Assembly (NCBI GenBank): GCA_016900015.1
Contig: JACJJM010000032.1
Coordinates: 1 to 35,525, forward strand
Origin: Phocaeicola coprophilus
GTDB taxonomy: Bacteria; Bacteroidota; Bacteroidia; Bacteroidales; Bacteroidaceae
Reading direction: 5' to 3'
Length of the DNA: 35,525 nt
Part shown: piece by piece, positions 13,957-30,214 of the stretch
Numbering within the stretch: position 1 is the first letter of the stretch
How the letters are laid out: the number at the start of each line of letters is the position of its first letter
Made by a program: the position numbers and the translations under genes
The notes under the pieces: model-generated
The model's database searches: none
What the model saw: the letters and a program-made list of their open reading frames with translations, nothing else
What the model was told of the DNA's origin: nothing

Positions 13957-13965
13957 GGAAAGAGT

Positions 13966-14118: not shown

Positions 14119-14271
14119 ACTTTATAATGTCGAACACCCAACAACGGAAGTAATGTATAACTGGAGCAATACTGTTGGCTTGAATAACGGTATTAAAAAC
14201 AGGCCGCTGCCTGTTGCCCTGAATCATTCATGCGTCGCGTCGGTCGCAGTTTTGCCCCTGTAATCATTCCT

Positions 14272-14391: not shown

Positions 14392-14447
14392 CCTTTGATG
14401 GAAGGGGAAAATGGAGATATCCATATTCTGATATTACTCCAGATGCT

Positions 14448-16844
14448 CTATGCATTCCTAATTGAACCTGCCTGCGTAAATCCACTATTTAATTTACACA
14501 TCATTTGATAAATTTCCTCTCTTAAACTTATGTATAAATCATTGGATTCAAACATTTCTTTAATGTCTTTTTCGACATATCCTTTTTGTGAAATCTCTTC
14601 CTTTATATAACGCAATTGCTTTAATTGTTTGATTTCCTTTTTGAAATTATTGTCGATTTTTTCCTGAACATTCCCTTGACCTTCAAATTCAATTGGACGA
14701 TAACTGTTATTTTTATAAAGTTCCCAATAATTTTTTACCCTTGTTTCATATTGACTTTGGCTATTGCAACCCTTCAAGAATTCTTCAAAATTCTCATAAC
14801 TGCCAAATATGGAGAAACAATATGGTTCAGGGAAAACCGTATTGAATTCCGGATTAGAGGAACGCCCTGTACGAATAAATTTTTTGAAATAATTTTCGGG
14901 ACATTTCAGAATTTCAATTTTCATTATATCCAAAGCTTCTTGCCTTAAAAACACCTTACCCGTATGTAAGTCAATATGGTCTTGACAATTATAGAACAGA
15001 TGAAACCCAAGCTCCGACAGTTTATCAGGACAATTTTTGAAATACTGTACTTGTATATCAGATAAATCAGGCAGTTTTATCAGTAACTGTTCGGAGGCAA
15101 TATTACTGTTTTGGATATTTTGAATAAATTTGGACAAGGCTGAAGTCATATTACTCTGATTTGTTGTTTCCGACAAAAAAGTATGAACGATTTTTTGTTC
15201 TTCATCCCCTATTTTATGATATAAATTGGACATCAAATTATCCCGTATCAAAATTGATAGCAGGAAATTTTCTGTATCAAAATAGTTACCGGAAGTAAAG
15301 TCCATGAAATTATACAGGTTCAGCAATGCCTTGAAATGCAGATTATTGATACAGCGCAGATTGGCCAAATGGGGGGCTATGGCAACGCTTACTTCCGTCC
15401 TTACTGCCGGCAAATCTATCTTGCATAACTTAGACAATATTCCATATATCATGCGATAATCTACCGGACTATATAGTTGGCCATTTTCATCTTTTTGCAG
15501 CTGTGAAATCTGGTTCAGAAGTGCCGCTATTGTATTCTGAAATTCTAACGGATATTTATTTTCGTATAAACTTTGTACAGCCTCTGAAAATTCATGTTCA
15601 TCTTTAGAAGCCAATGACATAAACTCAGGGACGGTCATAACTTTCTTATCCAGTCTGAACATAAAATATTTGTCATAGCTTCGAAGTTTGTGTATGGAAT
15701 ATACTCCATCGCTAAGACTGAACAAATAATTCAGAATATCATATATGATATCAACATGCTCATTGCCATGCGCCGCATTTTCAATACATGTTTTGACATC
15801 ATTCTTTAATCCAAATTTATCATTATTTAGTTCTAAAAGAGCAAAAGGCTTGTTGCAAAGGAGAGAATATAAATCATTGTATTTGTACCTCAGCAATTCG
15901 ATGTAAAACAAATCTTGAAATTCGATCTCCATTTCTATCTTCTGGTCCTTATAAACCTGAGCAATCATACGAAACGCATTGTGGAAACGGATCACATCCC
16001 GAATTGTATGCAAAACTTTTGGCAGCAAATAGCAACCCATAATGCTATTACTTGGATTATTAGGCGTATAATATATCATCTGAGTGATTTTTTCGTCCTC
16101 CGTGTTAATTCCCCATATATTATTAATGGTTGTGGAAAAACGAGATTTCAACTCTTGGCAAATAATTCGCTCTTCGCTTTTGGGCAAAGCAATTTCTACA
16201 TTAAGGAATTTTTCCAAATAAAGCTCAGGAACACCAATTCCTGAGTTTCTTAAAGCATTGCATACATAATTCTTATCATAAGCAACAATAAATTGTATAT
16301 ATGGGAAATTTGCAGTATTTCTGATTAGACGCAGCACTTCCTTGATTTCATCCGGACTCAATCTGTCAATATCATCTACAAAAACTACAATCTTATGTTT
16401 TGTATTTCTCAATTTCCGCCTGATTGTTTCATAAGGATTTTGATTGCCAATTATTTTTTGAAACGATTTGCTCAATATCTTCAACGGTTTGGCGGATTCC
16501 TCATCCAGCAATATTTGAATGTAATCATTGAATACAGAAGACATGTTCGGGATATAGATTTGCAATTCGTTGCGTAACGATGTAAAAAATGTCCTGACAA
16601 TAGAATCGGGAGTATCATTTTTCCAAGGTTCAAAATCAATGATACTAAGTATGGAAGTGTTTGTTTTATACTTGTCTTTCAAATTATTCATGAAAGTGGT
16701 TTTACCGCTTCCCCAAGTTCCTGTTATGGCCAATGCAAAACTTCCTTCTCCGTAAAAGCAAGTTGTCATTATATTATATGTAGTTTCAACCAATGGAGAA
16801 CGCCCATACGTATCGGAGACTTCTCTACTTTTTTCTATTTCCAA
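14448..16844 (-). CDS. KAP family P-loop ATPase (candidate defence protein)
   Basis: A 798-residue protein. The KAP NTPase domain occupies about 1-340: Walker A GTWGSGKT (42-49), the FEPW motif that often follows it (71-74), Walker B IVVFVDDIDRL (152-162), and ELYLEKFLNVEIALP downstream. The rest is a long region with no motif I know, likely a helical sensor or effector domain. KAP ATPases often carry membrane helices inserted between Walker A and B. Here the insert has none, and a separate membrane protein lies directly upstream. The gene starts at a TTG that overlaps the partner's end by 10 bases, so the two are coupled. PifA of plasmid F is a KAP protein that excludes phage, so a defence role is reasonable but unproven. 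The low GC content suggests recent gain. Confidence 0.85.
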   Translation of the reverse strand: MEIEKSREVSDTYGRSPLVETTYNIMTTCFYGEGSFALAITGTWGSGKTTFMNNLKDKYKTNTSILSIIDFEPWKNDTPDSIVRTFFTSLRNELQIYIPNMSSVFNDYIQILLDEESAKPLKILSKSFQKIIGNQNPYETIRRKLRNTKHKIVVFVDDIDRLSPDEIKEVLRLIRNTANFPYIQFIVAYDKNYVCNALRNSGIGVPELYLEKFLNVEIALPKSEERIICQELKSRFSTTINNIWGINTEDEKITQMIYYTPNNPSNSIMGCYLLPKVLHTIRDVIRFHNAFRMIAQVYKDQKIEMEIEFQDLFYIELLRYKYNDLYSLLCNKPFALLELNNDKFGLKNDVKTCIENAAHGNEHVDIIYDILNYLFSLSDGVYSIHKLRSYDKYFMFRLDKKVMTVPEFMSLASKDEHEFSEAVQSLYENKYPLEFQNTIAALLNQISQLQKDENGQLYSPVDYRMIYGILSKLCKIDLPAVRTEVSVAIAPHLANLRCINNLHFKALLNLYNFMDFTSGNYFDTENFLLSILIRDNLMSNLYHKIGDEEQKIVHTFLSETTNQSNMTSALSKFIQNIQNSNIASEQLLIKLPDLSDIQVQYFKNCPDKLSELGFHLFYNCQDHIDLHTGKVFLRQEALDIMKIEILKCPENYFKKFIRTGRSSNPEFNTVFPEPYCFSIFGSYENFEEFLKGCNSQSQYETRVKNYWELYKNNSYRPIEFEGQGNVQEKIDNNFKKEIKQLKQLRYIKEEISQKGYVEKDIKEMFESNDLYISLREEIYQMMCKLNSGFTQAGSIRNA

Positions 16845-17302
16845 TTTTGGTGAATCCCCGTTTTTATTATTTTTTTCATGTCACGCAGCAGCCAATGTAT
16901 CCATAAGATAAATTCTCCAATGAGAAGAAGAAAAACCAGCAGATTGCTCCAAGCTGTACATCTGTAACCTTCTACTATTGATGTATAATCCCATTTCCCT
17001 GAAAGGAAACAAATCAGGTAAAGCGAGATACCCACCCCAATGCAGACAATTCTAGTAAGGTTTATACTTTCACTTTTTCTGTATATATAAACGTAATACC
17101 CTAATATAAGCATGGAATACAAGATGACTGTCCACCATTCATGCCCATCAAATTTGCTCATGACTGGATCTACCCATATTTTGTTTATCCATCGTTCCCA
17201 GAAATCATCCAGAATGAAGAATGAGATGAATAATGTTACCCCTAAAAACCACAAAACAACTGATTTTGCAATAGATTGCGATAATTTGTATAATGTATTC
17301 AT
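16835..17302 (-). CDS. Four-helix membrane protein coupled to the KAP ATPase
   Basis: About 155 residues from the ATG at 17302; a GTG two codons earlier also fits. Predicted membrane segments lie near 14-34 (VVLWFLGVTLFISFFIL), 58-76 (WWTVILYSMLILGYYVYIY), 84-103 (TRIVCIGVGISLYLICFL) and 120-142 (WSNLLVFLLLIGEFILWIHWLL). The tail is basic and ends in the cytoplasm. It overlaps the KAP gene by 10 bases. It may supply the membrane anchor that many KAP ATPases have built in. I do not recognise a named family. Confidence 0.75.
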   Translation of the reverse strand: MNTLYKLSQSIAKSVVLWFLGVTLFISFFILDDFWERWINKIWVDPVMSKFDGHEWWTVILYSMLILGYYVYIYRKSESINLTRIVCIGVGISLYLICFLSGKWDYTSIVEGYRCTAWSNLLVFLLLIGEFILWIHWLLRDMKKIIKTGIHQNWK

Positions 17303-17706
17303 AAACACTATCTTATTTAGTAGAAATCATTATCTATTATTATTTGAGCACAAAAATAAAAAATCAATATGGGACGAACTATTTTTCGGAAGTTTTTTAT
17401 ACTTTTGTTTTCATCGGACAGAAAAACTACACAATGGAAGAAAAGGAAGCTGAAAAAATGAATATGATAAGAGCAGTAATGGAATGTACAAAGTACAAGC
17501 ATAAACTTCACACCTCTTTTTGCTTGGAACTGTAATCAAAAAAATGAAATCCTATAGAGAAAGAGAAATAATCAAATAAGGTTTTAGGATATTGATTTTC
17601 AACAGTCCTATTTCTCTTCAAGGCTTTGAAAAGAAACTTGCATACGGGTGTGAAGCATTTGAAAATAGTGTTGTGTCAAATATTTCATCCAAAAAACTTT
17701 TTATCA
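17303..17706. other. AT-rich intergenic region between divergent cargo modules
   Basis: No convincing gene is seen. Short frames occur on both strands, but they have phase-shifted low-complexity sequence. A minus-strand TATTTTTG at 17358-17351 could serve as the -7 box for the membrane protein and KAP pair, though without a clear -33 box. No repeat or hairpin of note was found. Confidence 0.5.
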
Positions 17707-17946
17707 ATGTCACCTATAGAAGAAAATAAGATTCAGCCTTTAACGGAGTATATTCAATTAAAAATTGAAATAGCATATCAAAAAGCCATTTCAAGAACGT
17801 CCATATTGCACCGTAAAGAATATATTGATCAATTGGCAATGGAAATATTCATTGACATGATGCGCAATGATTCGCAATTGCGGTATTATATGCAACCAAT
17901 TATAAAGCGAATGGTACAACGGTGCGGTAAAGAATATATCCTTTGA
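17707..17946 (+). CDS. Small helical protein upstream of the toxin candidate
   Basis: 79 residues from the ATG at 17707; the frame is open back to 17626, but the extra part looks poor. It is wholly helical and charged (EENKIQPLTEYIQLKIEIAYQ, RKEYIDQLAMEIFIDMMRNDSQLRYYMQPIIKRM). It ends in CTT TGA TGA, a tandem stop, 4 bases before the first possible start of the next frame. The next frame is +1 to it and is open across the stop, so the two could be one product through a +1 slip at CTT-TGA. Otherwise it is an adaptor or chaperone-like gene coupled to the toxin. No family was recognised. Confidence 0.6.
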   Translation: MSPIEENKIQPLTEYIQLKIEIAYQKAISRTSILHRKEYIDQLAMEIFIDMMRNDSQLRYYMQPIIKRMVQRCGKEYIL

Positions 17947-17950
17947 TGAC

Positions 17951-18430
17951 TTGAGAGAAAAAAACCGGACAGGCATATTTTATACAAATTTAGGAGTCGG
18001 TACATTTTCTGCTTATCTGGTTTATTCAGGCGGATATTATAAATGGAATGAAATTTGGCACAAAACCAAAACCGCAGGAACAGCTTTTCGTTGGGAATCA
18101 AGGTGGAAAAAGCATTTTTCAATACAGCATAGGATTAAAGACGTAAGTAAAGTTGCCAAATATCGCAATATAGCAGGTAAAGTAACCAAAGGGAGCGGTG
18201 TACTTTTAGCTGCAGATGTAATTGTTTCTGGCGAAATAAGACCTTCACATTTTATAAATGGGGCGATGCTTGGAGCATCAACCACTGGCATTGGTTCAAT
18301 TATTGCTGCTATTTGGTTTGCTGCAGATTTGGGAACTATGGGTATCAACATATTAATAAATGGAGAAGCAAAAGGCTTAGGGGATATTATTGACGAAGGA
18401 TTGAGCGATTACTGCTATAAAATATATTAA
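17951..18430 (+). CDS. Candidate membrane-active polymorphic toxin
   Basis: 159 residues from a TTG at 17951. There is no ATG in this frame, which stays open back to 17906. The first half contains aromatic motifs (GGYYKWNEIWHKTKTAGTAFRWESRW) like those of small orphan toxin proteins of Bacteroidetes. The second half (about 75-137) is a Gly and Ala-rich hydrophobic region (GKVTKGSGVLLAADVIV, then GASTTGIGSIIAAIWFAADLGTMGINILI) ending in GLGDIIDEGL. This matches the style of C-terminal tips of Rhs and similar polymorphic toxins that insert in membranes. A small multi-helix membrane protein follows 22 bases on, as expected for immunity to a pore former. The call rests on pattern and context, without a named family. 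Confidence 0.55.
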   Translation: MREKNRTGIFYTNLGVGTFSAYLVYSGGYYKWNEIWHKTKTAGTAFRWESRWKKHFSIQHRIKDVSKVAKYRNIAGKVTKGSGVLLAADVIVSGEIRPSHFINGAMLGASTTGIGSIIAAIWFAADLGTMGINILINGEAKGLGDIIDEGLSDYCYKIY

Positions 18431-18452
18431 ATAACTTACTTTTGGGAACAAT

Positions 18453-18833
18453 ATGAAATTCAACTTGTCTTTAATTGATTATGTCTGGTATACCGGAGAG
18501 CGCTTTCATCAACAAGAACACAATCCCGGAGATGGGACTATGCTAATAATGATAAGTTGGTTTTGTACATTATTCCTTCCTTTGTTATCTATTGTCTATA
18601 AATTAAAGACTTCCCCCATAATACAAATAATAGCTTCAATCATTCTTCTTCTTTTCCCATTCCTATTCTGCCACTTCAGATACACTCCAAAACATAAGGA
18701 AGCTCTTAATTTGAGGTATAAAAATAAGAAAAATTGGGGGCGTCGTCTGTTGATAATATGGGGAAGTTTAATCATCATAGTTGCAATAGAAGTGTTTCTC
18801 TTGTCCCAATTCGGAGTCTGGCATATAAAATAA
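18453..18833 (+). CDS. Candidate immunity protein, three membrane helices
   Basis: A 126-residue protein. It has a soluble N-terminus with YVWYTGERFHQQEHNPGDG, then membrane segments at about 30-49 (MLIMISWFCTLFLPLLSIVY), 56-75 (IIQIIASIILLLFPFLFCHF) and 98-118 (RLLIIWGSLIIIVAIEVFLLS). The loop between the second and third helices is strongly basic (KHKEALNLRYKNKKNWGRR). It lies 22 bases after the toxin candidate on the same strand. Small integral membrane proteins of this kind commonly protect against pore-forming toxins. Low GC and its place as the last gene of the cassette support one acquired unit. Confidence 0.55.
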   Translation: MKFNLSLIDYVWYTGERFHQQEHNPGDGTMLIMISWFCTLFLPLLSIVYKLKTSPIIQIIASIILLLFPFLFCHFRYTPKHKEALNLRYKNKKNWGRRLLIIWGSLIIIVAIEVFLLSQFGVWHIK

Positions 18834-19132
18834 GAGGTGATAATCTCATATTGTCCATATCTTCCATGCAATGAAATATCGGACTCCTTTTCCTGTAGTT
18901 CCACATAAAGATGTCCGGATAGTACAAATATGCTTGCGATGAAGTATGATGGTTATAAACACCTGCTTTTCGTCATGCCCATGTCCCGGTTCTTCCTAAC
19001 GAATTTACTCTTTACTGAGGATGAAGCATAAATGGCAAACCAGTACATTATAAATTTCCTAAAAGCAATTGTAATTTTCCCTGATATTTCATCTAACGGT
19101 GATTTAAGTTTTGCAAATATTTAACCCGTTAG
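18834..19132. other. Intergenic region before the IS982 element
   Basis: No gene, hairpin or repeat could be supported in these 299 bases. The sequence is AT-rich and may hold decayed remnants of earlier cargo. Confidence 0.5.
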
Positions 19133-19139
19133 TTAATAA
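19133..19139. repeat. Left target-site duplication of the IS982 element
   Basis: TTAATAA, identical to 20213-20219 on the other side. Confidence 0.8.
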
Positions 19140-20212
19140 TGCGAATCAGGAGTTGAAAATAGCTTCTGATTCAAGTTTTAAAAGTTTGTAATTCAGTTGA
19201 TTATCTCATTGTTTTATTTCGTAATCTCCTTGAAAATCAGTATATTAGAACAATAATTCCACTTATTTTCTAATTATGATTCCCAAGGAGAAAAAGTTAA
19301 AACTAATAAGTTTGTATATGTATATCTGTGATGTCTATAAGTCTTCTTTGCGTTTCTACTGCCAGAGATTCAGCAACAACTCCAATCCCGAGTTTACGGA
19401 CGAGGAGGTTCTTACCGTCTATCTGTTCTGCGGTTACTGCCAGAAATACTTCGGCATCAGAGAGATCCATACTTTCGCCAAGGAGTATCTGTCATCGTGG
19501 TTTCCTAAGCTGCCGTCTTACCAGACATTCAATACACGTTTGAACATGCTTTCAGAAGCCTTTAAAGTGTTGGCGGAAACCATGATACAATCATTCAAGC
19601 CTGAGGATTGCGACTCTCTCATTTCCATTGTGGATTCCATACCGATTGTTACCTGCAAAGGAAAGAACCGGGAAGGGAAAGTGGCAACGGAGATAACATC
19701 AAAAGGATATTGCTCTACCAAGAACATGTACTACTATGGCATGAAACTGCACATGGTAGGACAGCGGAGGAAGGGTACAATACCTTTTCCTGAGATGATA
19801 GTTCTGACACCGGCTTCGGACAACGACCTGACAGTATTCAAAAACGAATGCGCGCCATACCTGTCCGGAAAGACCGTGTTCGGGGACAAGATTTACTGCG
19901 ACTTTTCTTTCTTCAATGAGAGTAATCCGGTTAAAGTCCTTACCCCGCATAAGGAGATTAAGGGAGAGCCGGAAGTGCTCAAACAGAGGAATAAAGCAGC
20001 CAGAGACCTGTTCTCACAAGCTGTGTCCAAACTCAGACAACCCATCGAATCATTTTTTAATTGGCTGAATGAAAAAACAGAAATTCAAAGAGCATCTAAA
20101 GTAAGAGCTACCAAAGGCTTGTTGATACATACCTTTGGAAAGTTGGCCATTGCTCTACTTACATTTGTCAATTTTTAATCTTTTGAACCAGGAAGCCAAC
20201 TCCTGATTCGTA
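19140..20212 (+). mobile_element. IS982-family insertion sequence (intact)
   Basis: A 1073-base element bounded by 16-base terminal inverted repeats, TRCGAATCAGGAGTTG at 19140-19155 and its inverse at 20197-20212 (15 of 16 identical). It is flanked by a 7-bp direct repeat, TTAATAA, at 19133-19139 and 20213-20219, as expected for the 6-9 bp duplications of this family. It contains one complete transposase gene. It lies between the toxin cassette and the T6SS operon promoter. Confidence 0.88.
19276..20178 (+). CDS. IS982-family transposase
   Basis: A 300-residue DDE transposase of normal length. The acidic triad is visible as Asp120 (SIVDSIPIVTC), Asp204 (VFGDKIYCDF) and Glu258 (RQPIESFFNWL). 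The family blocks YYGMKLHMVG (about 153-162) and the PEMIVLTPASDNDLTVF stretch (172-188) are present. The N-terminal part (TDEEVLTVYLFCGY) is helical. The gene has no frameshift or internal stop, so the element should be able to move. It is alone within its inverted repeats, and the start ATG lies 121 bases after the left repeat. Confidence 0.93.
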   Translation: MIPKEKKLKLISLYMYICDVYKSSLRFYCQRFSNNSNPEFTDEEVLTVYLFCGYCQKYFGIREIHTFAKEYLSSWFPKLPSYQTFNTRLNMLSEAFKVLAETMIQSFKPEDCDSLISIVDSIPIVTCKGKNREGKVATEITSKGYCSTKNMYYYGMKLHMVGQRRKGTIPFPEMIVLTPASDNDLTVFKNECAPYLSGKTVFGDKIYCDFSFFNESNPVKVLTPHKEIKGEPEVLKQRNKAARDLFSQAVSKLRQPIESFFNWLNEKTEIQRASKVRATKGLLIHTFGKLAIALLTFVNF

Positions 20213-20219
20213 TTAATAA
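20213..20219. repeat. Right target-site duplication of the IS982 element
   Basis: TTAATAA, identical to 19133-19139. Confidence 0.8.
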
Positions 20220-20505
20220 GGATTCAATGGCATGACTGCAAGGCTGAATCCTCTTTTGACAGGTATTCCGTATCAAACGGCCTGCAACAAACACGTTGCT
20301 GCCTCTGCAACTTATTGTTCATTAAATTCTATTTGAAATTATGAAAATTAGTTATACCATTCCACCTCTTACTTTTTAAAAAGCGGCGTATTTTACTAAT
20401 TTAATTTGAACCGGCAAAATTTTCCACGAAATATTTTCTCTAAAAGTGTTTAGTCTTGGCGTTAAAATGCTATATTTGCAAGGTAGAATGTAAATTCGCA
20501 GAAAA
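20220..20505. other. Region between IS982 and tssE, holding the T6SS promoter
   Basis: No gene is seen. An 8-bp stem (AGGATTCA at 20219-20226 with TGAATCCT at 20245-20252) next to a CTTTT run may be a weak terminator left from before the insertion. The rest is AT-rich and leads into the tssE promoter at 20471. Confidence 0.5.
20471..20478 (+). promoter_or_regulatory. Promoter -7 box of the T6SS core operon
   Basis: TATATTTG is an exact TAnnTTTG match 27 bases before the tssE ATG. A weaker TTTA lies 18 bases upstream at 20449-20452 as a possible -33 box. The next 13 kb of genes have short or overlapping junctions and one direction, so this promoter probably drives the whole core operon. Confidence 0.65.
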
Positions 20506-20925
20506 ATGAGTTACATAAAGCTACCCATGAATCTACATGCTGCTGTGGACGGAAGGCTAAAACGCTGTTCCTATGAGGAATCCATAGCACAGCAGATAAT
20601 GCTTCTGATCGTTTCCCATCATGGAGAAGTGGTTGGACGGGAAGATTACGGTTCTGCTATTTGGGACTTGGAATTCAATCAGTTGGTGAAGATTAATGAA
20701 TGGGAAGAAAAGGTTCAAGTTTCTTTAATAAAAGCTATTCAGCTTTATGAAAAGAGATTGAAAAACGTCAGTGTAAAAGTTGTCTTATCAGAAATAGAAG
20801 ATGAGAACAAGAAGAACATACATGTACGACGCAAGGCACAGATTACGGTAACCGGCAACATCGTTTCTACAGATTTGCCTTTCCATTTTAATACACTTGT
20901 ATATATCAGTCCGCTTTCACAATAA
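20506..20925 (+). CDS. tssE: T6SS baseplate wedge protein TssE (gp25-like)
   Basis: A 139-residue protein of the gp25-like baseplate family, which sets the start of sheath assembly on the baseplate. The family motif GREDYGSAIWDLEFNQLV runs from 44 to 61 with Arg45 and the Glu/Asp pair intact. It is preceded by helices with IAQQIMLLIVSHHGEV and followed by KVQVSLIKAIQLYEKRLKNVSVKVVLSEI, as in the fold. It is the first gene after the promoter at 20471 and is 13 bases before the original tssF start. tssB and tssC, often near tssE, are not upstream here; an IS982 element is there instead. Confidence 0.9.
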   Translation: MSYIKLPMNLHAAVDGRLKRCSYEESIAQQIMLLIVSHHGEVVGREDYGSAIWDLEFNQLVKINEWEEKVQVSLIKAIQLYEKRLKNVSVKVVLSEIEDENKKNIHVRRKAQITVTGNIVSTDLPFHFNTLVYISPLSQ

Positions 20926-20938
20926 AACATAAACAGAT

Positions 20939-20957
20939 ATGGCAGATAAAAAGCTGA
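20939..20957 (+). pseudogene. tssF: Detached first codons of tssF
   Basis: ATG GCA GAT AAA AAG CTG A is the original tssF start, cut by the IS1595 insertion. Removing 20958-22055 rejoins it in frame to the main tssF body, giving Met-Ala-Asp-Lys-Lys-Leu-Ile-Glu-Ile-Lys. On its own, translation from here runs into the insertion sequence. Confidence 0.85.
20950..20957. repeat. Left target-site duplication of the IS1595 element
   Basis: AAAGCTGA, part of tssF codons 4-7; identical to 22048-22055. Confidence 0.92.
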
Positions 20958-22047
20958 AATGAATGTCCGCATGTTACCAAATTAGCAAAGTTTAAACTGC
21001 CCAATTGCCCCACAGGCATGTTTTGGAACACTTTATGCAGGATATAAAACGTAAGACAATAAACATATGCATTATGAACCTGCTTGATTTTTACCGTCAA
21101 TATCCCGACGAGGCATCCTGTGAGGAAGCCCTTCGCCGTTTCCGTGAGCATCATGGCCTGTTCTGTAGTCAATGCGGCGGTTTGCGCCTGAGCTGGAATC
21201 CGAGCCACAAGTCCTGGACGTGCATGGATTGCAAACATGAGATGCAACTTCGTTCCGGTACGGTAATGCAAGGCAGTCATCTGCCTGTTCGTGACTGGTT
21301 TGCTGCCATGTTCCTTCTGACGGCGACAAAGCGTGCCATATCCACCAAGGAGATACAGCGCCAGATTGGCCGTAAGCGTTACCAGCCTGTATGGGAGATG
21401 GTACACAAGCTGCGCGACGTGATGGGCAAGCGCGACGGACGCTACCCTCTCCATGGGGACATGGAGGTTGACGAGGGCTTCTTCTCCACGGAAACGCCCG
21501 AAGAACAGAAAGATTGCCCGTTGAAGCGCGGACGGGGAAGCCAGCGCAAGACCCCTGTCCTTGTCATGGCGGAAAGCAGCCTGCCAAAGACGCCTCCGGC
21601 CAAGAAGTACAGTACGCCCAAGAGTGTCGGGCATATAAAGATGCAGGTCATCGATGATTTCAAGGCTTCCACCATTACCGGCAAGATTAGGCAAGGAACG
21701 GACGGGAATGCCGATGTGACCACGGACGGGTTCAGCAGCTATGCCTCTCTTGGAAAGGACGGGGCGGCATCCTCCCATCATGCCGTCGTTACGGACGACA
21801 AAAGGAGTGTCGGGAAAGTCCTGCCATGGGTACACATTGTCATCAGCAACGCCAAGAGGAGCATACTGGACACTTACCATGACATAAAAGCGGAGTTCCT
21901 CCAGCTCTACCTCAACGAGTTCTGCTACAAGTTCAACAGAAGGTATTTCGGATGTAGCCTCTTTGAAAGGCTTGAACTTTGTGCGTGTTCCTATAGGGCG
22001 GACTTCAAACATAGAATTTACTAATTGGCAACTTGCGGACATTCATT
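20958..22047 (+). mobile_element. IS1595-family insertion sequence inside tssF
   Basis: A 1090-base element. The ends are inverted repeats starting AATGAATGTCCGCA and then GTT.CC, at 20958-20977 and 22028-22047, differing at two of the first 20 positions. It is flanked by a perfect 8-bp duplication AAAGCTGA (20950-20957 and 22048-22055), the usual length for this family. It holds one complete transposase gene in the tssF direction. The clean ends and identical duplications suggest a recent insertion. Confidence 0.93.
21074..22024 (+). CDS. IS1595-family (ISXO2-like) transposase
   Basis: 316 residues from the ATG at 21074; upstream in-frame sequence to 21005 is not typical for the family. A zinc ribbon holds Cys31, Cys34, Cys50 and Cys53. 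The catalytic domain has Asp133 in DMEVDEGFFS, Asp218 in VTTDGFSSY, then VISNAKRSILDTYHDIKAEFLQLYLNEFCYKFNRR with candidate third residues Asn259 or Glu282. The order and length fit IS1595/ISXO2 transposases. Its stop TAA (22022-22024) directly abuts a TTG that is in frame with tssF. The gene is intact. Confidence 0.93.
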   Translation: MNLLDFYRQYPDEASCEEALRRFREHHGLFCSQCGGLRLSWNPSHKSWTCMDCKHEMQLRSGTVMQGSHLPVRDWFAAMFLLTATKRAISTKEIQRQIGRKRYQPVWEMVHKLRDVMGKRDGRYPLHGDMEVDEGFFSTETPEEQKDCPLKRGRGSQRKTPVLVMAESSLPKTPPAKKYSTPKSVGHIKMQVIDDFKASTITGKIRQGTDGNADVTTDGFSSYASLGKDGAASSHHAVVTDDKRSVGKVLPWVHIVISNAKRSILDTYHDIKAEFLQLYLNEFCYKFNRRYFGCSLFERLELCACSYRADFKHRIY

Positions 22048-23818
22048 AAAGCTGATTGAAATAAAAGAACGCATATTGAAGTATGCAATGGAACTGTGGG
22101 GCATTGAGGATGCCAAGAATATGGATCCAGTCGTTGATTTGCTGCTGGATGTGTTCGCCTATGAATCGGCCAGACTCCATAACGAAATCGAAGAATCAGA
22201 CTCACATATCCTTTCCCGTTTGTCCCAAATACTAACAGGCGACAAATGGTCTTTGCCTACACCGGCCCATGCCTTGATGTCCATAAACCCCAACCGAGGT
22301 GAAATGCGTCTATTAGATGCGGAAGATCATTTTTACGCTGAAAAATACATTTTTGGCAAAGGAAACACCCAAGTCTTTTTTACTCCCCTTTTTTCATATC
22401 CGTTAGTGGATGCCCAATTGCGTATGACCGTTTTTGGCAATACAGTCAGGGAGTATAAAGACAAACAAACTTTTTCCTCGTCCATCCTTCAACATGATAA
22501 GGAAACGCCGTTTGATACCCGTTCCATCTGGCTGGGAATAGCAATTAGTGATGAACAACTGCAAAAGTTGCAGGACCTCACACTCTGCATTATCCCTAAA
22601 GACCTGTCTTTACTCGCTTTTTTGAAAGCTCTTCGATTTTGTGATTACCAGGGAAAGAATTTGTCGGTACACATAGGACTTGATGTAAAAGACCCATTCA
22701 ATAATGCCCATTATTTTGAAGAAATCAGACGTTATTACAATGATTATTATTTCAAAGTAGAAGTAGCGAAAGCAACGAAAGCATTCTTTTCCCTCCAGCA
22801 AATGCTTCCAGATTCAAATCCTGTCAATGAAAATGTGGATACGACTGTAAAACTTTGGTGGATAAAGATAGAATTGCCGGAAATCTTCAATTATGACAAT
22901 ATAGGGAATTTGCAAATTTACCTGAATACCTACCCAGTGGTGAACAGGCAATTGGTTTATAAGCAGCATAATTTCTCCAATAGTGGAAGAATCATACCGC
23001 TGCCATGCCCTAAAGAATGTCATTTCCTCAACATACGCTCAATACAAGATAATTCAGGAACGGAATATGTCAACCGTCTCCAGCAATATGATGAACATCC
23101 TACCGGCGTTTTCAGTCTCTATTTCGGAGATCTGGAACGGTTTGATTCTGATGATGCGTCATCATTGATATCCAAAACATTGCAACGCATACGAGAAGAC
23201 GGGAATGCCTTTGCTGCCATGAATCCTGACATGCTTGCGACCCAGCTTCAAGACTTGTCTGCAAAGCTCAAAGAGTTTGAAAAAGATGTGGAATCGACAG
23301 ATACGGACAAAGACGGCCGAAAGCAACGGGTCTTTGTACTTACTGTTCCCAAACCGGAAGCAAGCAGTGCAGAGATTAAATTCTGGGTAACACTCGGTGA
23401 ATTTGAATGTGAGTTCAATGAAAGGACTTTTATACAACAATTCAATATAGACAAATACGATGCAGGAAGTTTCCAATTCAGAACACCTGTTCAAAAAGGA
23501 GTTGTCCATACTGAAGAAACAGACTTAATAAACAATCTGAGATACGGTCTGGTCAGCCGCGACAGAATTGTCTCTAAAGAGGATATACATAATTATATCT
23601 TGCATAAAATTGGCAGCAATGTCAAATCTATAGAGTTTAAGGATGGTGTAGAGATGGCACCAGAGAAGAAAAAAGGTTTCGTACGAGTTATGCAGATTGA
23701 AATCAAACTGGACGGGAACCATACGTATTCTGATTTGTCACCACTTGCCCATTTCCTTGAAACAGATTTGACAGAGCGGTCGGTATGTAATTCATCTTAT
23801 AAAATAATATTCTTATGA
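22025..23818 (+). CDS. tssF: T6SS baseplate protein TssF, N-terminus replaced by IS end
   Basis: A 597-residue reading frame from a TTG inside the right end of the IS1595 element; all tssF codons from the fifth (Lys-Leu-Ile) onward are intact. The family head ILKYAMELWGIEDAKNMDPVVDLLLDVFAYESARLHNEI is seen at about 18-57, followed by SLPTPAHALMSINP and the beta-rich body. TssF forms the baseplate wedge with TssG, TssE and TssK. The native start at 20939 is cut off. The new N-terminus (Ala-Thr-Cys-Gly-His-Ser-Leu) would replace Met-Ala-Asp-Lys, and the TTG follows the transposase stop with no gap, so coupled restart is possible. Otherwise Met at about codon 22 is the next ATG. Whether enough protein is made cannot be seen. 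Confidence 0.85.
   Translation: MATCGHSLKLIEIKERILKYAMELWGIEDAKNMDPVVDLLLDVFAYESARLHNEIEESDSHILSRLSQILTGDKWSLPTPAHALMSINPNRGEMRLLDAEDHFYAEKYIFGKGNTQVFFTPLFSYPLVDAQLRMTVFGNTVREYKDKQTFSSSILQHDKETPFDTRSIWLGIAISDEQLQKLQDLTLCIIPKDLSLLAFLKALRFCDYQGKNLSVHIGLDVKDPFNNAHYFEEIRRYYNDYYFKVEVAKATKAFFSLQQMLPDSNPVNENVDTTVKLWWIKIELPEIFNYDNIGNLQIYLNTYPVVNRQLVYKQHNFSNSGRIIPLPCPKECHFLNIRSIQDNSGTEYVNRLQQYDEHPTGVFSLYFGDLERFDSDDASSLISKTLQRIREDGNAFAAMNPDMLATQLQDLSAKLKEFEKDVESTDTDKDGRKQRVFVLTVPKPEASSAEIKFWVTLGEFECEFNERTFIQQFNIDKYDAGSFQFRTPVQKGVVHTEETDLINNLRYGLVSRDRIVSKEDIHNYILHKIGSNVKSIEFKDGVEMAPEKKKGFVRVMQIEIKLDGNHTYSDLSPLAHFLETDLTERSVCNSSYKIIFL
22048..22055. repeat. Right target-site duplication of the IS1595 element
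   Basis: AAAGCTGA, identical to 20950-20957, in frame with the tssF body. Confidence 0.92.
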
Positions 23819-26250
23819 AAGAAAGCGATTATAGTCCCAGTTTGCTCGTAGCCATCAGAACAGCCCAAGCAATGGCCCGGCACGAAAGGCAAAGCACCTA
23901 TGGTGTACCGCATCTCGTTTTGGCTATGCTGACAGGAGATACGGGGCTAAAAGATATATTAGCATCCATGCAGAAGGACGTTGCATATATTCTGGAATGG
24001 TTTGAAACCCATAAAGAAATGTACTCATCACCGGAAAGTGATTCTGACTCCCCCAGTCCGGATGAAGAACTCTCCAAAGTATTAGACGAGGCAGAACGCT
24101 CCAAGATAAAGCTGGGATTCGACCAAATTGATGCACTTTGCGTGTTTGCAGCCATTTCAAGGGAAGGTGTCATTTATTCCCACAATCAGATTGAAATGCT
24201 GGGAGTCAGTGAAGAAGATATACTCCAATTCTATAATGCTTCCACTTCCGTACTTTCCTACCAAGGAGAAGAAAATCAAGTGCTGGCTTCTGTCCCTTAT
24301 GCGGACAATCTGAAATCGGAAGCTATCATAAAAGCCGGAGAAATAGTTATCGGACGCGACAAGGAAGTACGTACTATGCTGGAATGCCTTGAACGGTCTG
24401 AAAACAAAGGAATTATGATTGTAGGCGATTCGGGCATTGGTAAAAGCGCCCTCATCCAATCCTTTGTCAAGGAGATTTGCAGGAATCAAGATGAAATGCT
24501 GCAACAGTTACCGATTGTCGGTCTGAATGCAGCCAAATTGCTGGCCGCCACCTCCTCTGAGAATGAGATAGCACAGAAAATTGTGGCACTCATACATAAG
24601 CTGGAACAGTTGGAACAAGTTGTGCTGGTCATAGACGATCTGCATGTTTTGTTGGCAAACGGACATGGGGGCAAAAGCGATGTTCTGGTCAACATTCTTA
24701 ATTCGCAAATCAGTGAGGGACAGTGCAACCTAATACTGACAATGACAAACGATGCCTATCGCAAATACATCGAAAAGCATTCTATCGAAAGCCGGTTGGA
24801 TGTCATAAAAATAGAAGAGCTGGATGACTCCACCTTGAAAAGCGCCCTGCGGCTTCATCAACAAAAGATCGAAGAACATTACGGACTGAAAATCGCGGAC
24901 AATTGCATTCCAGATGCCATTCAATTATCCAAACGATACTTTAAGGAAAAAAGCCTTCCTTCTGCCGCAATAGATTTGCTGGACAGGGCCTCTGCAGTAG
25001 TGCGCCTCTGCAATAAAAACGTAAAATATATCATTGAGAGATTCATTTCGGACTTCAATAAGCTGAAAGAAAGCGGAAACTGGGACGAATCAGCTTTATA
25101 CCTTCTTTATCGCACCATATTCAACAAGACCAGCGTTGTACTTACTACCAAGCTTTCCGTAGCTTATACCTGGAACAAGGATGACAGCGACGAGACAAAG
25201 CTTCAATGGCTGGAACGGATTCTTTCCGAACTTTCAATTCTGGCTTCCCGCAATATCGAAGAGGTCACCGGTGCCGAACTGGAGGCAATCGTAGCTGAAA
25301 GTACCCATATCCCTATCGGAAAAATACAAGCCCGTGAAAAAGACAGACTTTTGGGTATTGAGAGTAAGTTACAGGAACGGGTCAAAGGACAAGGACGGGC
25401 CATATCCACTCTTTCCGATGCTATCATAGAATCGCGCAGCGGATTGAGCGATCCTAAGAAACCTATCGGTTCCTTCTTTTTTCTGGGTCCGACCGGCACC
25501 GGCAAAACTGAGTTGACCAAATCGTTGGCTGAACTGTTATTTGACGATGAATCAGCCATGATTCGTTTTGACATGTCCGAGTTCAAGGAAGAACATTCAG
25601 CCGCCTTGCTTTACGGTGCTCCTCCGGGATATGTAGGTTATGAAGAGGGAGGTTTGCTTGTCACCCAAATCAGGCAAAAGCCTTATTCAGTCGTGTTGTT
25701 CGATGAAATCGAGAAGGCTCATTCCAGCGTATATGACGTATTCCTCCAAATGATGGATGAAGGGAAGATTCATGACAAACTGGGACGTGAAGGAGACTTT
25801 TCCAACTCCATAATCATCTTTACTTCCAATATCGGAAGTCAATGGATTGTAGATCAGATACAAGCCGGACATACCCCAACTTCTGCCAAATTGATAGAAG
25901 TGATGTCACAATATTTCCGTCCTGAATTTTTAGGCCGATTGACTGAAGTCGTCCCCTTTTCTCCCATTAACGAGGAAATCGCACAGGAAATATTCCTGTT
26001 GCATTTTTCACGTCTGCAAGAACAACTGTTGAAGCAGAAAAACATACGTCTGGACCTCTCGGAAGAAGCATTGCAATATTTGTCAAAGAAAGGATTTTCA
26101 CCCAAATACGGAGCAAGACCGATTGCCGGCGTCATACGAACTTATATAAAGAAAAACATATCCAAACTGATTGTCGCTGAAAGCGTCAAACCTGGAGACA
26201 AAATCATTGTTAACTTAAAGAATGAAGAGTTGGTATGGGAACTTCTGTAG
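23815..26250 (+). CDS. tssH: T6SS sheath-disassembly ATPase TssH (ClpV)
   Basis: An 811-residue Clp/Hsp100 ATPase that recycles the contracted sheath. The N domain (1-150) has two Clp-N-like repeats. The first ATPase domain has Walker A GDSGIGKS (204-211) and Walker B VVLVIDDLHVL near 268-278, where the usual Glu after Asp is Asp. The middle region is about 380-530. The second domain has Walker A GPTGTGKT (near 561-568), the pore loop GAPPGYVGYEEGG, Walker B VVLFDEIEKAHSSVYDVFLQMMDEG and the sensor TSNIGS. The C-terminal D2 small domain holds ARPIAGVIRTYIKK. The start overlaps the tssF stop by 4 bases and the end overlaps tssG by 16. The call is firm. Confidence 0.95.
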   Translation: MKESDYSPSLLVAIRTAQAMARHERQSTYGVPHLVLAMLTGDTGLKDILASMQKDVAYILEWFETHKEMYSSPESDSDSPSPDEELSKVLDEAERSKIKLGFDQIDALCVFAAISREGVIYSHNQIEMLGVSEEDILQFYNASTSVLSYQGEENQVLASVPYADNLKSEAIIKAGEIVIGRDKEVRTMLECLERSENKGIMIVGDSGIGKSALIQSFVKEICRNQDEMLQQLPIVGLNAAKLLAATSSENEIAQKIVALIHKLEQLEQVVLVIDDLHVLLANGHGGKSDVLVNILNSQISEGQCNLILTMTNDAYRKYIEKHSIESRLDVIKIEELDDSTLKSALRLHQQKIEEHYGLKIADNCIPDAIQLSKRYFKEKSLPSAAIDLLDRASAVVRLCNKNVKYIIERFISDFNKLKESGNWDESALYLLYRTIFNKTSVVLTTKLSVAYTWNKDDSDETKLQWLERILSELSILASRNIEEVTGAELEAIVAESTHIPIGKIQAREKDRLLGIESKLQERVKGQGRAISTLSDAIIESRSGLSDPKKPIGSFFFLGPTGTGKTELTKSLAELLFDDESAMIRFDMSEFKEEHSAALLYGAPPGYVGYEEGGLLVTQIRQKPYSVVLFDEIEKAHSSVYDVFLQMMDEGKIHDKLGREGDFSNSIIIFTSNIGSQWIVDQIQAGHTPTSAKLIEVMSQYFRPEFLGRLTEVVPFSPINEEIAQEIFLLHFSRLQEQLLKQKNIRLDLSEEALQYLSKKGFSPKYGARPIAGVIRTYIKKNISKLIVAESVKPGDKIIVNLKNEELVWELL

Positions 26251-27173
26251 AACAACGGAAAGACAAGATCACCCGACTGAAACGAAGCAAAGCTGGTGAT
26301 TATGTAGCGGAAATCTTCTTCGACGAATTACAGTTTGTCCTGAACGAAGACTTGCTGGAGCATATCCTTGTGGTATGCCACGGCATGAATACCCGTGTAA
26401 AATCGAAAGATGTCCTGAATGTTTCCTTGCGCTATTTTCCCACTACAAATTCACATAAAGAATTTGTCACTTTGCATCTTGCCCGCAACAGCATGTATCA
26501 CCAGCTGCCTGAATTCCTGTTCCATCCTCTGGTTATCAGTATGCCCGGCATGAGCAACAAGGAAATCGTGGACGCCATCCGGACCAACAAGAAGCAAGAA
26601 AGGGAGCAGATAGCCTTTTTTTCTTTTTTTGACACGGCATTCTTCAAGGAACATGTCAATATCATCAATCGACATTTGAATTTCTTTTCCAATCCGATAT
26701 CCAGGCAGAACCTGAACCGGGCAATCAAAAAACTTCAAAATGTCCCCTTGTCCATTTCCTCTTATGAAAGGTACAAGTTATTCCTGTTTTTGTGCCAAGC
26801 GGAAAAATACAAAGAGAACCTGCCTGCGATTGAAAAACTTTTTGCCATCGTACTAAACCTGGAAGTTTCGCTCAGATATGTACCACACTACATTACAGCT
26901 CCTATTTATCAACCGGTCGGAAAAGGCGTTTTAGGTTTTACAATCGGATTGAACGGTAATATCCAATGTGAAGAAGATAACCTGGAAGCGGTTATAAAGC
27001 TCAAAGAACATGCGGATGATTATGCTTACCTGAATCAGTTGGTATCGACAGTAACCGCTATTCTCAACTTTTTTATTCTTTCCATCCGGAACATAACTGT
27101 AAAATATGTTGTTCTCAATGATTATGGCTGTATATTGGGGAAAAACCGTTTGGGATATGATACGAATCTGTAA
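26235..27173 (+). CDS. tssG: T6SS baseplate protein TssG
   Basis: A 312-residue protein of the Bacteroidetes TssG type, partner of TssF in the baseplate wedge. Supporting regions are the N-terminal DYVAEIFFDELQFVLNEDLLEHILVV, the block EFVTLHLARNSMYHQLPEFLFHPLVISMPGMSNKEIVDAIRTNKKQEREQIAFFSFFDTAFF (about 75-138), and the C-terminal PIYQPVGKGVLGFTIGLNG. It starts within the tssH end (16-base overlap) and is followed 19 bases later by tssN. The position right after tssF and tssH, as in other subtype iii loci, supports the call. Confidence 0.87.
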   Translation: MGTSVEQRKDKITRLKRSKAGDYVAEIFFDELQFVLNEDLLEHILVVCHGMNTRVKSKDVLNVSLRYFPTTNSHKEFVTLHLARNSMYHQLPEFLFHPLVISMPGMSNKEIVDAIRTNKKQEREQIAFFSFFDTAFFKEHVNIINRHLNFFSNPISRQNLNRAIKKLQNVPLSISSYERYKLFLFLCQAEKYKENLPAIEKLFAIVLNLEVSLRYVPHYITAPIYQPVGKGVLGFTIGLNGNIQCEEDNLEAVIKLKEHADDYAYLNQLVSTVTAILNFFILSIRNITVKYVVLNDYGCILGKNRLGYDTNL

Positions 27174-27192
27174 CGATAAAATTTTATAGACT

Positions 27193-28071
27193 ATGGAAAT
27201 GTTAGTGTCTATTTTTGCCAAATACCTGCTTATGCCGCTGTTTGTGGTTGTCATTCTGTTTGTTCTGAACGGAATGAGGACGCTCAAACGCAAGCTGAGC
27301 ATGAAGAAAGCAATCATATTCATCTTGATTGCCGCTCTGATAATGGCTCTTCCCTCCTTGTTTGGGCTTTTGCGCAATGAATTTGTTTGGGGAGGGTTAA
27401 TACTTACCGTACTGAGCTATATCGGTTTAGGATTTATTTTGTGGAAATTTACCAAAAGCAACCTGTTCAAATCCATTGGTATTGACAAGTCAACCGTAGG
27501 GACAATCTTATTGCTGATTGTAACAGGGCTATTAGGTGGCTGGATATATTATCTGGTGTTTGAACGAATAAGCAAGCTACCTTATGTTCTCTGGTGTACC
27601 CTGAATGTATTCTGGTTCATTGTGCCTTATATGATTATGTGGAGCAAACAGTTGTTCTCACTGATTCCACCTCCTATTTACGAACCGTGGGAACTGAATT
27701 TAGGAACTTTTGACCGGAATTATTGGGACAATATCGATAGTTATAGTTCCAAGTCCGTAAAAGTAAAAATCAAACGTAGGCTTAGTGACCGTTCTTACGT
27801 TTCACTGGTAGTCCGCTTGCCGGACGGGATCTCTTTGGGCAATTGGTTCAACTGGTTTATCGAAGACCAAAACAGGCGTTATCCACAAAATAAAATCGAA
27901 ACCGGTGATGCCAATAACAAAATCGGATGGACCTTCTATACGTCCAGAGGCTTTAATTTCCCTTTCCTCATCCGTATATTAGATCCGCTTAAAACCAGCG
28001 AGCAAAATAAAATAAGGAACAATCGAACCATATATATACGCCGAGTAAAAGTCGAAACAACAAACGAATAG
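27193..28071 (+). CDS. tssN: T6SS subtype iii membrane protein TssN
   Basis: A 292-residue protein. The N-terminal half is membrane embedded with about five helices (near 5-26, 36-58, 65-85, 98-120 and 128-148). The C-terminal half is soluble, starting IPPPIYEPWELNLGTFDRNYWDNIDSYSSKSVKVKIKRRL and including LPDGISLGNWFNWFIEDQNRRYP. TssN is one of the components found only in Bacteroidetes systems, which lack the TssJLM membrane complex, so it is thought to help form the alternative envelope anchor. The gene lies between tssG and tssK, the usual order. Confidence 0.85.
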   Translation: MEMLVSIFAKYLLMPLFVVVILFVLNGMRTLKRKLSMKKAIIFILIAALIMALPSLFGLLRNEFVWGGLILTVLSYIGLGFILWKFTKSNLFKSIGIDKSTVGTILLLIVTGLLGGWIYYLVFERISKLPYVLWCTLNVFWFIVPYMIMWSKQLFSLIPPPIYEPWELNLGTFDRNYWDNIDSYSSKSVKVKIKRRLSDRSYVSLVVRLPDGISLGNWFNWFIEDQNRRYPQNKIETGDANNKIGWTFYTSRGFNFPFLIRILDPLKTSEQNKIRNNRTIYIRRVKVETTNE

Positions 28072-28090
28072 TAAATGAATATTACAATAT

Positions 28091-29242
28091 ATGAATAAGA
28101 TAGAACACTTGCCTATCAATTGGGCAGACGGTCTGAAATTGAGAGCCGAACATTTGGTGGAGAATTATTTCAGTATTCTCGAATCAAATTACCGAACTGT
28201 CAGCCAATCCCTGACCAACTACAATTATGGTCTGGGAGATGCCCTGGAAAATTCCGGAGAAAGTATTGAAATCGAAATCAGCGGAATGACCGTTGATACC
28301 TTATCCGTACATTTGAAATCTTGTAATGCATTGACCAGAAGCGGCATACCCATCCTGTTTTATGACGGATTGTATGGGGACTACATACCTTCAGCCACTA
28401 TGGCAGCCAACGGCTACTCCACCATTGGCGACAATGCATTCTATATTCTTGTCTCCGTCAATCCCTATCGGTTGATTCCCGTAGGAGAACCAGATCCTGA
28501 CGAAGTGCCACTGCGACATCCGAATGTTTTGCCTGAAATCGGCATGCACCTTGTTCCGAAAAATCAAGTCAACAAGGCGTTTTATAACAAGAATTTTCTG
28601 ATTGTCGGTGAGATCCAGACACAAGGGAACTCTTTTTCAGTCAACAGGCAATATATACCGCCTCTGCAAAAATCAGCCTATCACGATGGTGTAAGAAGTT
28701 TTCTCAACCAACTGAACCATACGCTTCATGCTATCCGGGATGACATCCGCTTGATTTATAACCGGAACATATCCGATAAGCGCAGGGATATACTGGCCAA
28801 CAACACATTCGTTCTCTGTGAGGCTTTTAACAGCTTCTATGACAGCCGTATATTCTATTTGGAACAGATTGCAGAAGAGCAGCCCCCTATATTTATCGTA
28901 CAAGCCATCAACGAACTGGCAAACAAGCTGGCTTCCGCCTTGCAGACCATTTCAGAGACCGAACGAGAAGAATTGCTGCAATACTACTATGAATGGACGG
29001 ATATCACTCCTTCCGATTTTATGCGAGACATGGAAAATGTCGTATCCTTGAAATACAACCATACAGAAATCATTGATTCGCTAAATGTATCAGGGGCGTT
29101 TATCACCCTTCTGCGCAAGATGTTCCATAAGATGAGCGAACTGGAATATATCGGTCTGGTACGCGAAAACATTGTTATGGGCGAAGAACACAAAACTCCC
29201 CTTTCACAGCAGAAGAAAAAAAGATGGTTCTTCATGGAATGA
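28091..29242 (+). CDS. tssK: T6SS baseplate protein TssK
   Basis: A 383-residue protein. The N-terminus (INWADGLKLRAEHLVENYFSILESNYRTVSQSLTNYNYGL) is the Bacteroidetes version of the TssK shell domain, which begins with a W-x-x-G-x-x-L-x-x-H/E-H type motif. The middle is beta-rich (FYDGLYGDYIPSATMAANGYSTIGDNAFYILVSVNPYRLIPVGEPDPDEVPLRHP). The C-terminal half is helical. TssK links the baseplate to the envelope complex and may bind effector cargo. It is 19 bases after tssN and 29 before tssO. Confidence 0.9.
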   Translation: MNKIEHLPINWADGLKLRAEHLVENYFSILESNYRTVSQSLTNYNYGLGDALENSGESIEIEISGMTVDTLSVHLKSCNALTRSGIPILFYDGLYGDYIPSATMAANGYSTIGDNAFYILVSVNPYRLIPVGEPDPDEVPLRHPNVLPEIGMHLVPKNQVNKAFYNKNFLIVGEIQTQGNSFSVNRQYIPPLQKSAYHDGVRSFLNQLNHTLHAIRDDIRLIYNRNISDKRRDILANNTFVLCEAFNSFYDSRIFYLEQIAEEQPPIFIVQAINELANKLASALQTISETEREELLQYYYEWTDITPSDFMRDMENVVSLKYNHTEIIDSLNVSGAFITLLRKMFHKMSELEYIGLVRENIVMGEEHKTPLSQQKKKRWFFME

Positions 29243-29271
29243 CAATATAATAACCTTAAAATTAAAGAAGA

Positions 29272-29766
29272 ATGGAAACTCTAAATACAGACGACCGCAA
29301 GCAGAAAAAGGCCATTTTCTGTTTAGTGTTTTTTATCACCCTTCTGTTAACAGCACTTTGCGGGAGCGCATCTATCGTCACAGCACAAAAAGGAATTTCG
29401 CTCCTTAAAGAAAAAAAAGCAGAATACGATGAAATGTTCAAAAAACAGGCCGAACTGAATTTCCAAATGGAAGAGCTTTTCAAAGACCTGAACAATTTGA
29501 AGATGAAGCAGCGCAACACGAGCGAGCACAAGCATATGCAGCAGCTAATCACCCGAAAAAGGCTGCGCATGGAAGATGAAATATCCCTGATTGAATGGGG
29601 GAACTATGAGATATACCAACAAATGCTTGAGCAAATCAAGGTCATTCAATCCACCATGGACAACCTTGACCGAGAGAACAAAAAGCGTGAATCCAATATG
29701 GAACAATTGGAAAAATGCCGTATGAAATATCAGGAACTAACCAAACAACAATCAACAAAGCCATGA
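29272..29766 (+). CDS. tssO: T6SS subtype iii protein TssO family
   Basis: A 164-residue protein with a single membrane helix at about 15-38 (AIFCLVFFITLLLTALCGSASIV), then long coiled-coil stretches (LLKEKKAEYDEMFKKQAELNFQMEELFKDLNNLKM, and the region from 105 to 160). This is the architecture of TssO and related small inner-membrane proteins unique to Bacteroidetes T6SS. The gene overlaps the next one by 4 bases (ATGA). The next gene has the same design, so which of the two is the orthologue of the named TssO cannot be settled by eye. Confidence 0.7.
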   Translation: METLNTDDRKQKKAIFCLVFFITLLLTALCGSASIVTAQKGISLLKEKKAEYDEMFKKQAELNFQMEELFKDLNNLKMKQRNTSEHKHMQQLITRKRLRMEDEISLIEWGNYEIYQQMLEQIKVIQSTMDNLDRENKKRESNMEQLEKCRMKYQELTKQQSTKP

Positions 29767-30209
29767 CAAGAGACGAAACCATTTGGACAAACATACGTTT
29801 TACCTTGCTCCTTGTTTTTTCGGTAGCAGTTATCTTCATATTGCTGGTCAAATACGTTTTTGATGTACCGATGGAAGAAAGTTCAGACTTAATCAAGGAC
29901 ATCAACCATTCTGAAACGGTATTCGAGCAGCAAAAGGAACTTGCTGAGAAAGCCGCCATCGTATGGAGTGAAGTCGATTCACTGGACTTCAATGTGTATC
30001 AAGTGCAGCGTATGGATGAGATTAAAGGTGAAATATCCTCGCTCAGAGATATTTATATCAAGAACAACATGAATTCAAAGTTCTTTTTCAGCGTATTATC
30101 TTCACGGACATTGAAATTTCAATTTGACATCCGGGAAGAGCTTAACAGTGTCATCCACAACAACGAGCTGATAGAAGAAGATTTGGAAGAATGTAAAGCA
30201 AACTTATAA
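29763..30209 (+). CDS. Small T6SS membrane protein, TssO-like
   Basis: 148 residues from the ATG at 29763 (a longer frame from 29715 lies inside the previous gene). One membrane helix at about 12-31 (FTLLLVFSVAVIFILLVKYV) is followed by a periplasmic helical domain with EESSDLIKDINHSETVFEQQKELAEKAAIVWSEVDSL. It has the same plan as the preceding gene, suggesting an ancient duplication or a pair that forms a hetero-oligomer. It belongs to the Bacteroidetes-only set (TssO, TssP, TssQ and so on); the exact letter is uncertain. It overlaps the preceding gene by 4 bases and is 5 bases before the PKD gene. Confidence 0.65.
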   Translation: MTRDETIWTNIRFTLLLVFSVAVIFILLVKYVFDVPMEESSDLIKDINHSETVFEQQKELAEKAAIVWSEVDSLDFNVYQVQRMDEIKGEISSLRDIYIKNNMNSKFFFSVLSSRTLKFQFDIREELNSVIHNNELIEEDLEECKANL

Positions 30210-30214
30210 CTGAT

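What the first reader, a model, noticed from the sequence alone, without database searches (positions are those of the whole stretch)
20939..22060. IS1595 insertion in codon 6-7 of tssF, with in-frame rescue by the IS end
The 8-bp duplication AAAGCTGA and matching inverted repeats prove the insertion at 20958-22047. Removing it restores an ATG-started tssF 13 bases after tssE. The right IS end is open in the tssF frame: the transposase stop TAA abuts TTG GCA ACT TGC, which reads straight into tssF. The baseplate gene may thus survive through stop-restart coupling with the transposase, or the T6SS may be off until the element leaves. This would tie T6SS activity to an IS.
Basis: partly seen in the sequence, partly recalled or inferred. 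Interest (0 to 1): 0.8.

Follow-up and report, generated by a model that had tools for sequence, protein, structure and literature searches.

The report
Mobile element inserted in tssF start
A jumping gene landed, very recently, seven codons into a gene for a bacterial weapon carried on a mobile DNA element shared between Bacteroides-like bacteria; it cuts off the gene's normal start and happens to leave a weak substitute start in frame, so the weapon is probably weakened or off, an ordinary kind of event.

Summary
A 1090-bp IS1595 element (20958-22047, 21/23-bp inverted repeats, 8-bp duplication AAAGCTGA) sits after the first base of codon 7 of tssF in a Bacteroidota T6SS on an integrative element. 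An uninterrupted natural copy exists in Bacteroides mediterraneensis An793: its contig matches the window on both sides at 99.97-100% and lacks exactly the IS plus one 8-bp copy. The interruption is a recent insertion. Chromosome beside the element is only 68-78% alike, so the element moved between genera. The in-frame TTG abutting the transposase stop is real: it would give TssF with residues 1-4 replaced by (M)ATCGHSL and 5-593 native, just ahead of the first invariant residue, Ile9. But all three frames of that IS end are open with TTG or GTG, the TTG lacks A at -3 and -6, and no promoter was recognised in the IS. 'Rescue' is possible, not shown; a switch has no support. IS present on only some copies of such elements are published (PMC8102008, passages). 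Most likely a fresh insertional weakening or knock-out.

The parts
20506..20925 (+). tssE-like baseplate gene (gp25 family), intact, 13 bp upstream of the old tssF start
   Evidence: PF04965 E 6.9e-11; TIGR03357 E 2.6e-6 but below its cut-off
20939..20962 (+). severed native tssF start: ATG, codons 2-6 and the first base of codon 7; now runs into a TGA after MADKKLK
   Evidence: uninterrupted in L006
20950..20957 (+). left copy of the 8-bp target duplication AAAGCTGA
20958..22047 (+). IS1595-family insertion sequence, 1090 bp, co-directional with the tss genes
21074..22024 (+). IS1595 transposase, 316 aa
   Evidence: NF033547 E 3.3e-62; same-length gene annotated IS1595 family transposase in NZ_CP045613.1
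22025..22047 (+). right terminal inverted repeat; begins with the in-frame TTG directly after the transposase stop
22048..22055 (+). right copy of the 8-bp target duplication
22025..23818 (+). open chimeric tssF frame: (TTG)ATCGHSL + native TssF residues 5-593; next in-frame ATG at 22088 (native Met18)
   Evidence: PF05947 30.6 bits, cut-off 25

Best explanation
An IS1595 element inserted, very recently, into the 5' end of tssF on a T6SS-bearing integrative element that had itself just moved between two genera of one Bacteroidota family. Shown: the insertion, its recency, the natural empty site, the loss of the native start and the open in-frame junction. Inferred: TssF output is strongly reduced, so the T6SS of this strain is weak or off. 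Transcription probably still passes through (transposase and tss genes point the same way), and a little chimeric TssF may be made from the TTG, but as leakage, not as regulation.
For: Natural empty site at 99.99% identity on both sides with the 8-bp overlap. Differences from An793 over window 3-35525 outside the IS: two bases in the tRNA at the edge, SNPs at 3657 and 24998, one homopolymer length change at 16877. Chromosome next to the element only 68-78% alike; An793 is genus g13, the window's genome g1. Five of 8 other IS copies with both ends placed have perfect 8-bp duplications, so the IS behaves normally. Native ATG frame stops after 7 codons. No other tssF match in this genome at E 0.001. 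TTG start has T at -3 and -6. [quoted passage not shown]
Against: The insertion falls before the first invariant TssF residue (Ile9) and in the frame that keeps it, the mildest kind of site in the gene. Stop-to-start distance is zero, in the range where translational coupling works in E. coli (under 25 nt optimal; PMC7538156, passage). Start context is a weak predictor here: 4 of the 10 downstream tss starts tabulated lack A at -3, and 2 of those 10 (tssG, tssK by position) lack A at both -3 and -6, like the TTG.
Confidence: 0.65

Rival explanations
1. In-frame rescue: ribosomes ending the transposase restart at the abutting TTG and make a working TssF with an 8-residue IS-derived tip in place of MADK; the T6SS stays active, coupled to transposase translation.
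For: Open frame and abutting stop-start; residues 2-8 vary in sequence or length among 16 aligned TssF and Ile9 is the first invariant residue after Met1, so an altered tip should be tolerated (inference).
Against: TTG with T at -3/-6; transposases are usually poorly translated (general knowledge); frame match is 1 in 3 and the IS end offers TTG or GTG in every frame; no population or expression data.
Confidence: 0.2
2. Internal start: TssF lacking 17 residues is made from the ATG at 22088 (native Met18) and is partly active or inactive.
For: An ATG stands at this place in the window and in 10 of the 20 relatives read.
Against: It removes Ile9 (invariant) and Arg12 and Ala17 (nearly invariant); start context G at -3, T at -6.
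Confidence: 0.1
3. Reversible switch: the T6SS is off until the IS leaves precisely and on afterwards.
For: An empty copy exists in another genus.
Against: The empty copy in another host is most simply the ancestral state; regulated precise excision of such IS is not known to me; no mixed site could be looked for here. Junction and empty-site patterns had 0 matches in viral contigs, which says little.
Confidence: 0.03
4. Assembly artefact joining an IS to tssF.
For: Draft assembly of 254 contigs.
Against: Exact 8-bp duplication and inverted repeats at both junctions; the full IS occurs once in the assembly, as expected of a copy that could be assembled through.
Confidence: 0.02

Closest known systems
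IS1595 family insertion sequences
   Same: Transposase matches the IS1595 model and ISXO2-like DDE domain; 8-bp duplications at 5 of 8 other copies with both ends placed; a 95.8% copy on Bacteroides xylanisolvens plasmid NZ_CP045613.1 is annotated IS1595 family
   Different: Nothing unusual found; only remote DNA similarity to plasmid copies annotated ISBbi1 (69% over 13% of the query)
T6SS-iii loci on integrative elements of gut Bacteroidales (GA1/GA2 type)
   Same: TssE, TssF, TssN and TssD matches above cut-off, ClpV- and TssK-like genes, a tyrosine-recombinase-like ORF near the tRNA (my reading), near-identical copies in two genera and an IS on one copy only. PMC8102008 passages report near-identical copies across species, IS on some copies, and integrases for GA1/GA2
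   Different: One end lies at tRNA-Asp; the passages seen name tRNA-Phe, -Lys and -Pro for GA2 and a 7-bp pattern for GA1. Subtype not determined
T6SS loci broken in gut Bacteroidales
   Same: PMC8102008 (passages) reports tssC and vgrG frameshifts and loci frameshifted, truncated or replaced by a transposable element, in strains holding both GA1 and GA2 elements
   Different: Here the gene body stays open and in frame behind the IS, and this genome shows no second tssF

Membership tests
IS1595 family IS | IS1595-type DDE transposase | tested here: met
   NF033547 210.1 bits, cut-off 75; PF12762 88.4 bits, cut-off 27
IS1595 family IS | 8-bp target duplication (recalled) and terminal inverted repeats | tested here: met
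   Window copy; duplication perfect in 5 of 8 other copies with both ends placed, absent in 3
IS1595 family IS | N-terminal zinc ribbon | tested here: inconclusive
   PF12760 E 0.0014, 19 bits, below its cut-off of 25.4
Bacteroidota T6SS-iii | TssN and other phylum-specific genes beside baseplate genes | tested here: met
   TssN PF17555 E 7.3e-66, TssD PF17642 E 1.2e-13. TssG had no match; TssO/P/Q/R were not searched; all these are named by position only
TssF | TssF domain | tested here: met
   PF05947 30.6 bits, cut-off 25; but TIGR03359 18.8 bits, far below its 260.3 cut-off, and solved TssF 6giy only at E 0.7, beside an unrelated protein at E 0.6: a divergent TssF
Functional TssF from the chimeric frame | Translation from TTG 22025 | not testable with these tools
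   Needs ribosome profiling, proteomics or a reporter
GA1/GA2 integrative element | Published integration site | tested here: inconclusive
   22-bp tRNA-Phe site of GA2a/b/c: 0 matches with up to 3 mismatches in the window; one end at tRNA-Asp. tRNA-Lys, tRNA-Pro and GA1 sites not searched; other end not examined

The most novel reading that the evidence does not exclude
The IS has captured tssF: the baseplate protein is now made only by restart behind the transposase, with an IS-coded tip, so firing of the T6SS rises and falls with translation of the transposase.
Probability: 0.1. Interest if true: 0.6.

Novelty: new member of a known kind. Interest (0 to 1): 0.25.

Why it matters
It is a cleanly dated case: a T6SS element passed between genera and one copy then acquired an IS in a structural gene, with almost no other change. 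Such pairs make it testable whether a newly acquired T6SS is kept or silenced in a new host. If the restart worked, it would show an IS taking over translation of a secretion-system gene.

Tried and rejected
Outward promoter at the right IS end: no TAnnTTTG motif inside the IS on the + strand (the only one in 20401-22300 is at 20471, upstream of tssE) and no + strand sigma-70-like site in the IS (3 sites in the region on both strands, shuffles mean 3.7). The motif is recalled, so an unrecognised promoter remains possible. Terminator blocking read-through: one + strand terminator-like site, 21142-21156, inside the transposase gene; 4 in all against 2.6 (sd 1.7) in shuffles, not convincing.

Argument that the benign position proves selection: rejected. 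One insertion has nearly the same probability at this site whether or not the T6SS is constrained (inference). Target preference does not explain the site well either: it is somewhat AT-rich (70% in 40 nt; 11% of tssF windows reach that), but the 5 other clean duplications are 87.5-100% AT and this one 62.5%.

Other carriers: junction and empty-site patterns, 0 matches each in viral contigs; IS in phages, no match. Structure prediction of the chimeric TssF was asked 8 times and never started, machine busy. Rfam found only the tRNA. Literature searches: no listed title or abstract start describes an IS that replaces the tssF start; of these only listings were seen, apart from passages of PMC8102008, PMC6847099, PMC7538156, PMC12694586, PMC4714493 and PMC10781749. 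Passages of PMC4714493 and PMC10781749 gave nothing on IS in tssF.

Full report
The observation. The sequence holds what was described. The IS spans 20958-22047, with matching ends and an 8-bp duplication AAAGCTGA on both sides. It encodes a 316-aa transposase that passes the IS1595 model. It lies after the first base of codon 7 of tssF, 32 bases behind tssE. The native frame now ends after MADKKLK.

Proof of insertion from nature. A peptide-pattern scan of the genome collection (one genome for each of 84,980 species) returned one relative: Bacteroides mediterraneensis An793, 100% identical over 585 residues; records near the window's own genome may be left out, and the scan reaches close relatives only. 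Its contig is collinear with the window: 99.97% over 3-10964, 99.99% over 10964-20957, 99.99% over 22048-33815 and 100% over 33815-35525, without the IS and with one copy of the 8 bp. Outside the IS the differences are two bases in the tRNA at the edge, SNPs at 3657 and 24998 (the latter clpV Ala395Val), and one homopolymer length change at 16877. A further 14,001 bases of the An793 element are present at 100% on another contig of the window's genome.

A mobile element between genera. The two genomes fall in different genera (g1 and g13; An793 is taken to be G248 from its 89,917-base contig and 100% match). The An793 chromosome beyond the tRNA matches another contig of the window's genome at only 68-78%, against 99.97-100% inside. 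The element thus moved recently, and one end is at a tRNA-Asp gene. The TssF search gave matches in 20 of 399 genomes of the family (own included), none of them among the 14 other genomes of the genus (2 of 61, own included).

The IS. 31 of 399 family genomes (own included) match its DNA, most over a part only; five near-full copies at 94.8% or more occur in four other genomes. Of the 11 regions fetched, 8 have both ends placed, and 5 of those have a perfect 8-bp duplication, 3 not. A 95.8% copy is on a conjugative B. xylanisolvens plasmid. In the window's genome there is one full copy and one 76% fragment.

Could TssF survive? The frame is open from TTG 22025 to the stop at 23818. Relative to An793, residues 1-4 (MADK) become eight residues and 5-593 are unchanged. 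In an alignment of 16 TssF (An793 and 15 relatives) the first invariant residue after Met1 is Ile9, and positions 2-8 vary in sequence or length. Of the 21 loci read (An793 among them as L036, aligned as L006), five were left out: the window's own, two that look near-identical to aligned ones at the N-terminus, and two with short matches only, whose N-termini look different; so invariance is not claimed for those. A TTG-started product should fold, by inference; structure prediction never ran. Starting at the next ATG would lose Ile9, Arg12 and Ala17.

Why this is not yet rescue. The right end of this IS is open in all three frames with a TTG or GTG in each; the left end, read outward, offers starts in two of three frames, ATG included. 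That the frame fits is a 1-in-3 matter. TTG 22025 has T at -3 and -6; the native ATG has G at -3 and A at -6, the ATG at 22088 G and T. In F. johnsoniae, A at -3 and -6 favours initiation and Shine-Dalgarno sequences are lacking in the phylum (PMC6847099, abstract and passages). For coupling, E. coli work gives under 25 nt as best and favours new initiation helped by melting of mRNA structure over true restart (PMC7538156, passages). I searched for no Bacteroides coupling data beyond. Against my reading: of the 10 downstream tss starts tabulated, 4 lack A at -3 (clpV, tssG, tssK and the gene at 30215) and 2 of these (tssG, tssK) lack A at -6 too; mean pairing from -20 to +20 is alike for the TTG and the native ATG (0.44 and 0.43), though from -5 to +5 it is higher at the TTG (0.54 against 0.36).

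What is known. [quoted passage not shown] A mouse-gut preprint (PMC12694586, passages) cites inactivating T6SS mutations arising over time and found that P. vulgatus carrying such an element was eventually supplanted by its parent. So the event is ordinary; the tidy in-frame end is the only unusual detail.

Verdict. Observation confirmed; insertion and recency near certain. Most likely effect: weakened or lost TssF (0.65). Restart with function: 0.2. Switch by excision: 0.03.

Noticed in passing
window 3-77: tRNA-Asp at one edge of the element; identity with An793 drops from 99.97% to 68-78% beyond it. The passages seen of PMC8102008 list tRNA-Phe, -Lys and -Pro for GA2 elements, so tRNA-Asp may be a further integration site.
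   Followed up: partly
window 19276-20178: IS982-like transposase (NF033520 E 2.3e-31, below its cut-off) just upstream of tssE, in the stretch shared with An793, hence older than the transfer; might affect the tss promoter.
   Followed up: no
window 24998: clpV Ala395Val is the only base difference from An793 in the 11.8 kb behind the IS.
   Followed up: partly
window 16877: A run of T is one shorter than in An793, near the 3' end of a short ORF (16835-17308, minus strand) that looks membrane-bound by eye.
   Followed up: no
window 34949-35525: Contig ends inside a stretch that has a second, 90.6% identical copy further along the An793 element, a likely cause of the assembly break.
   Followed up: partly
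window 17951-18833: Two small ORFs upstream of the IS982-like gene; the first (17951-18430) had no Pfam match, the second was not searched. Function open.
   Followed up: no
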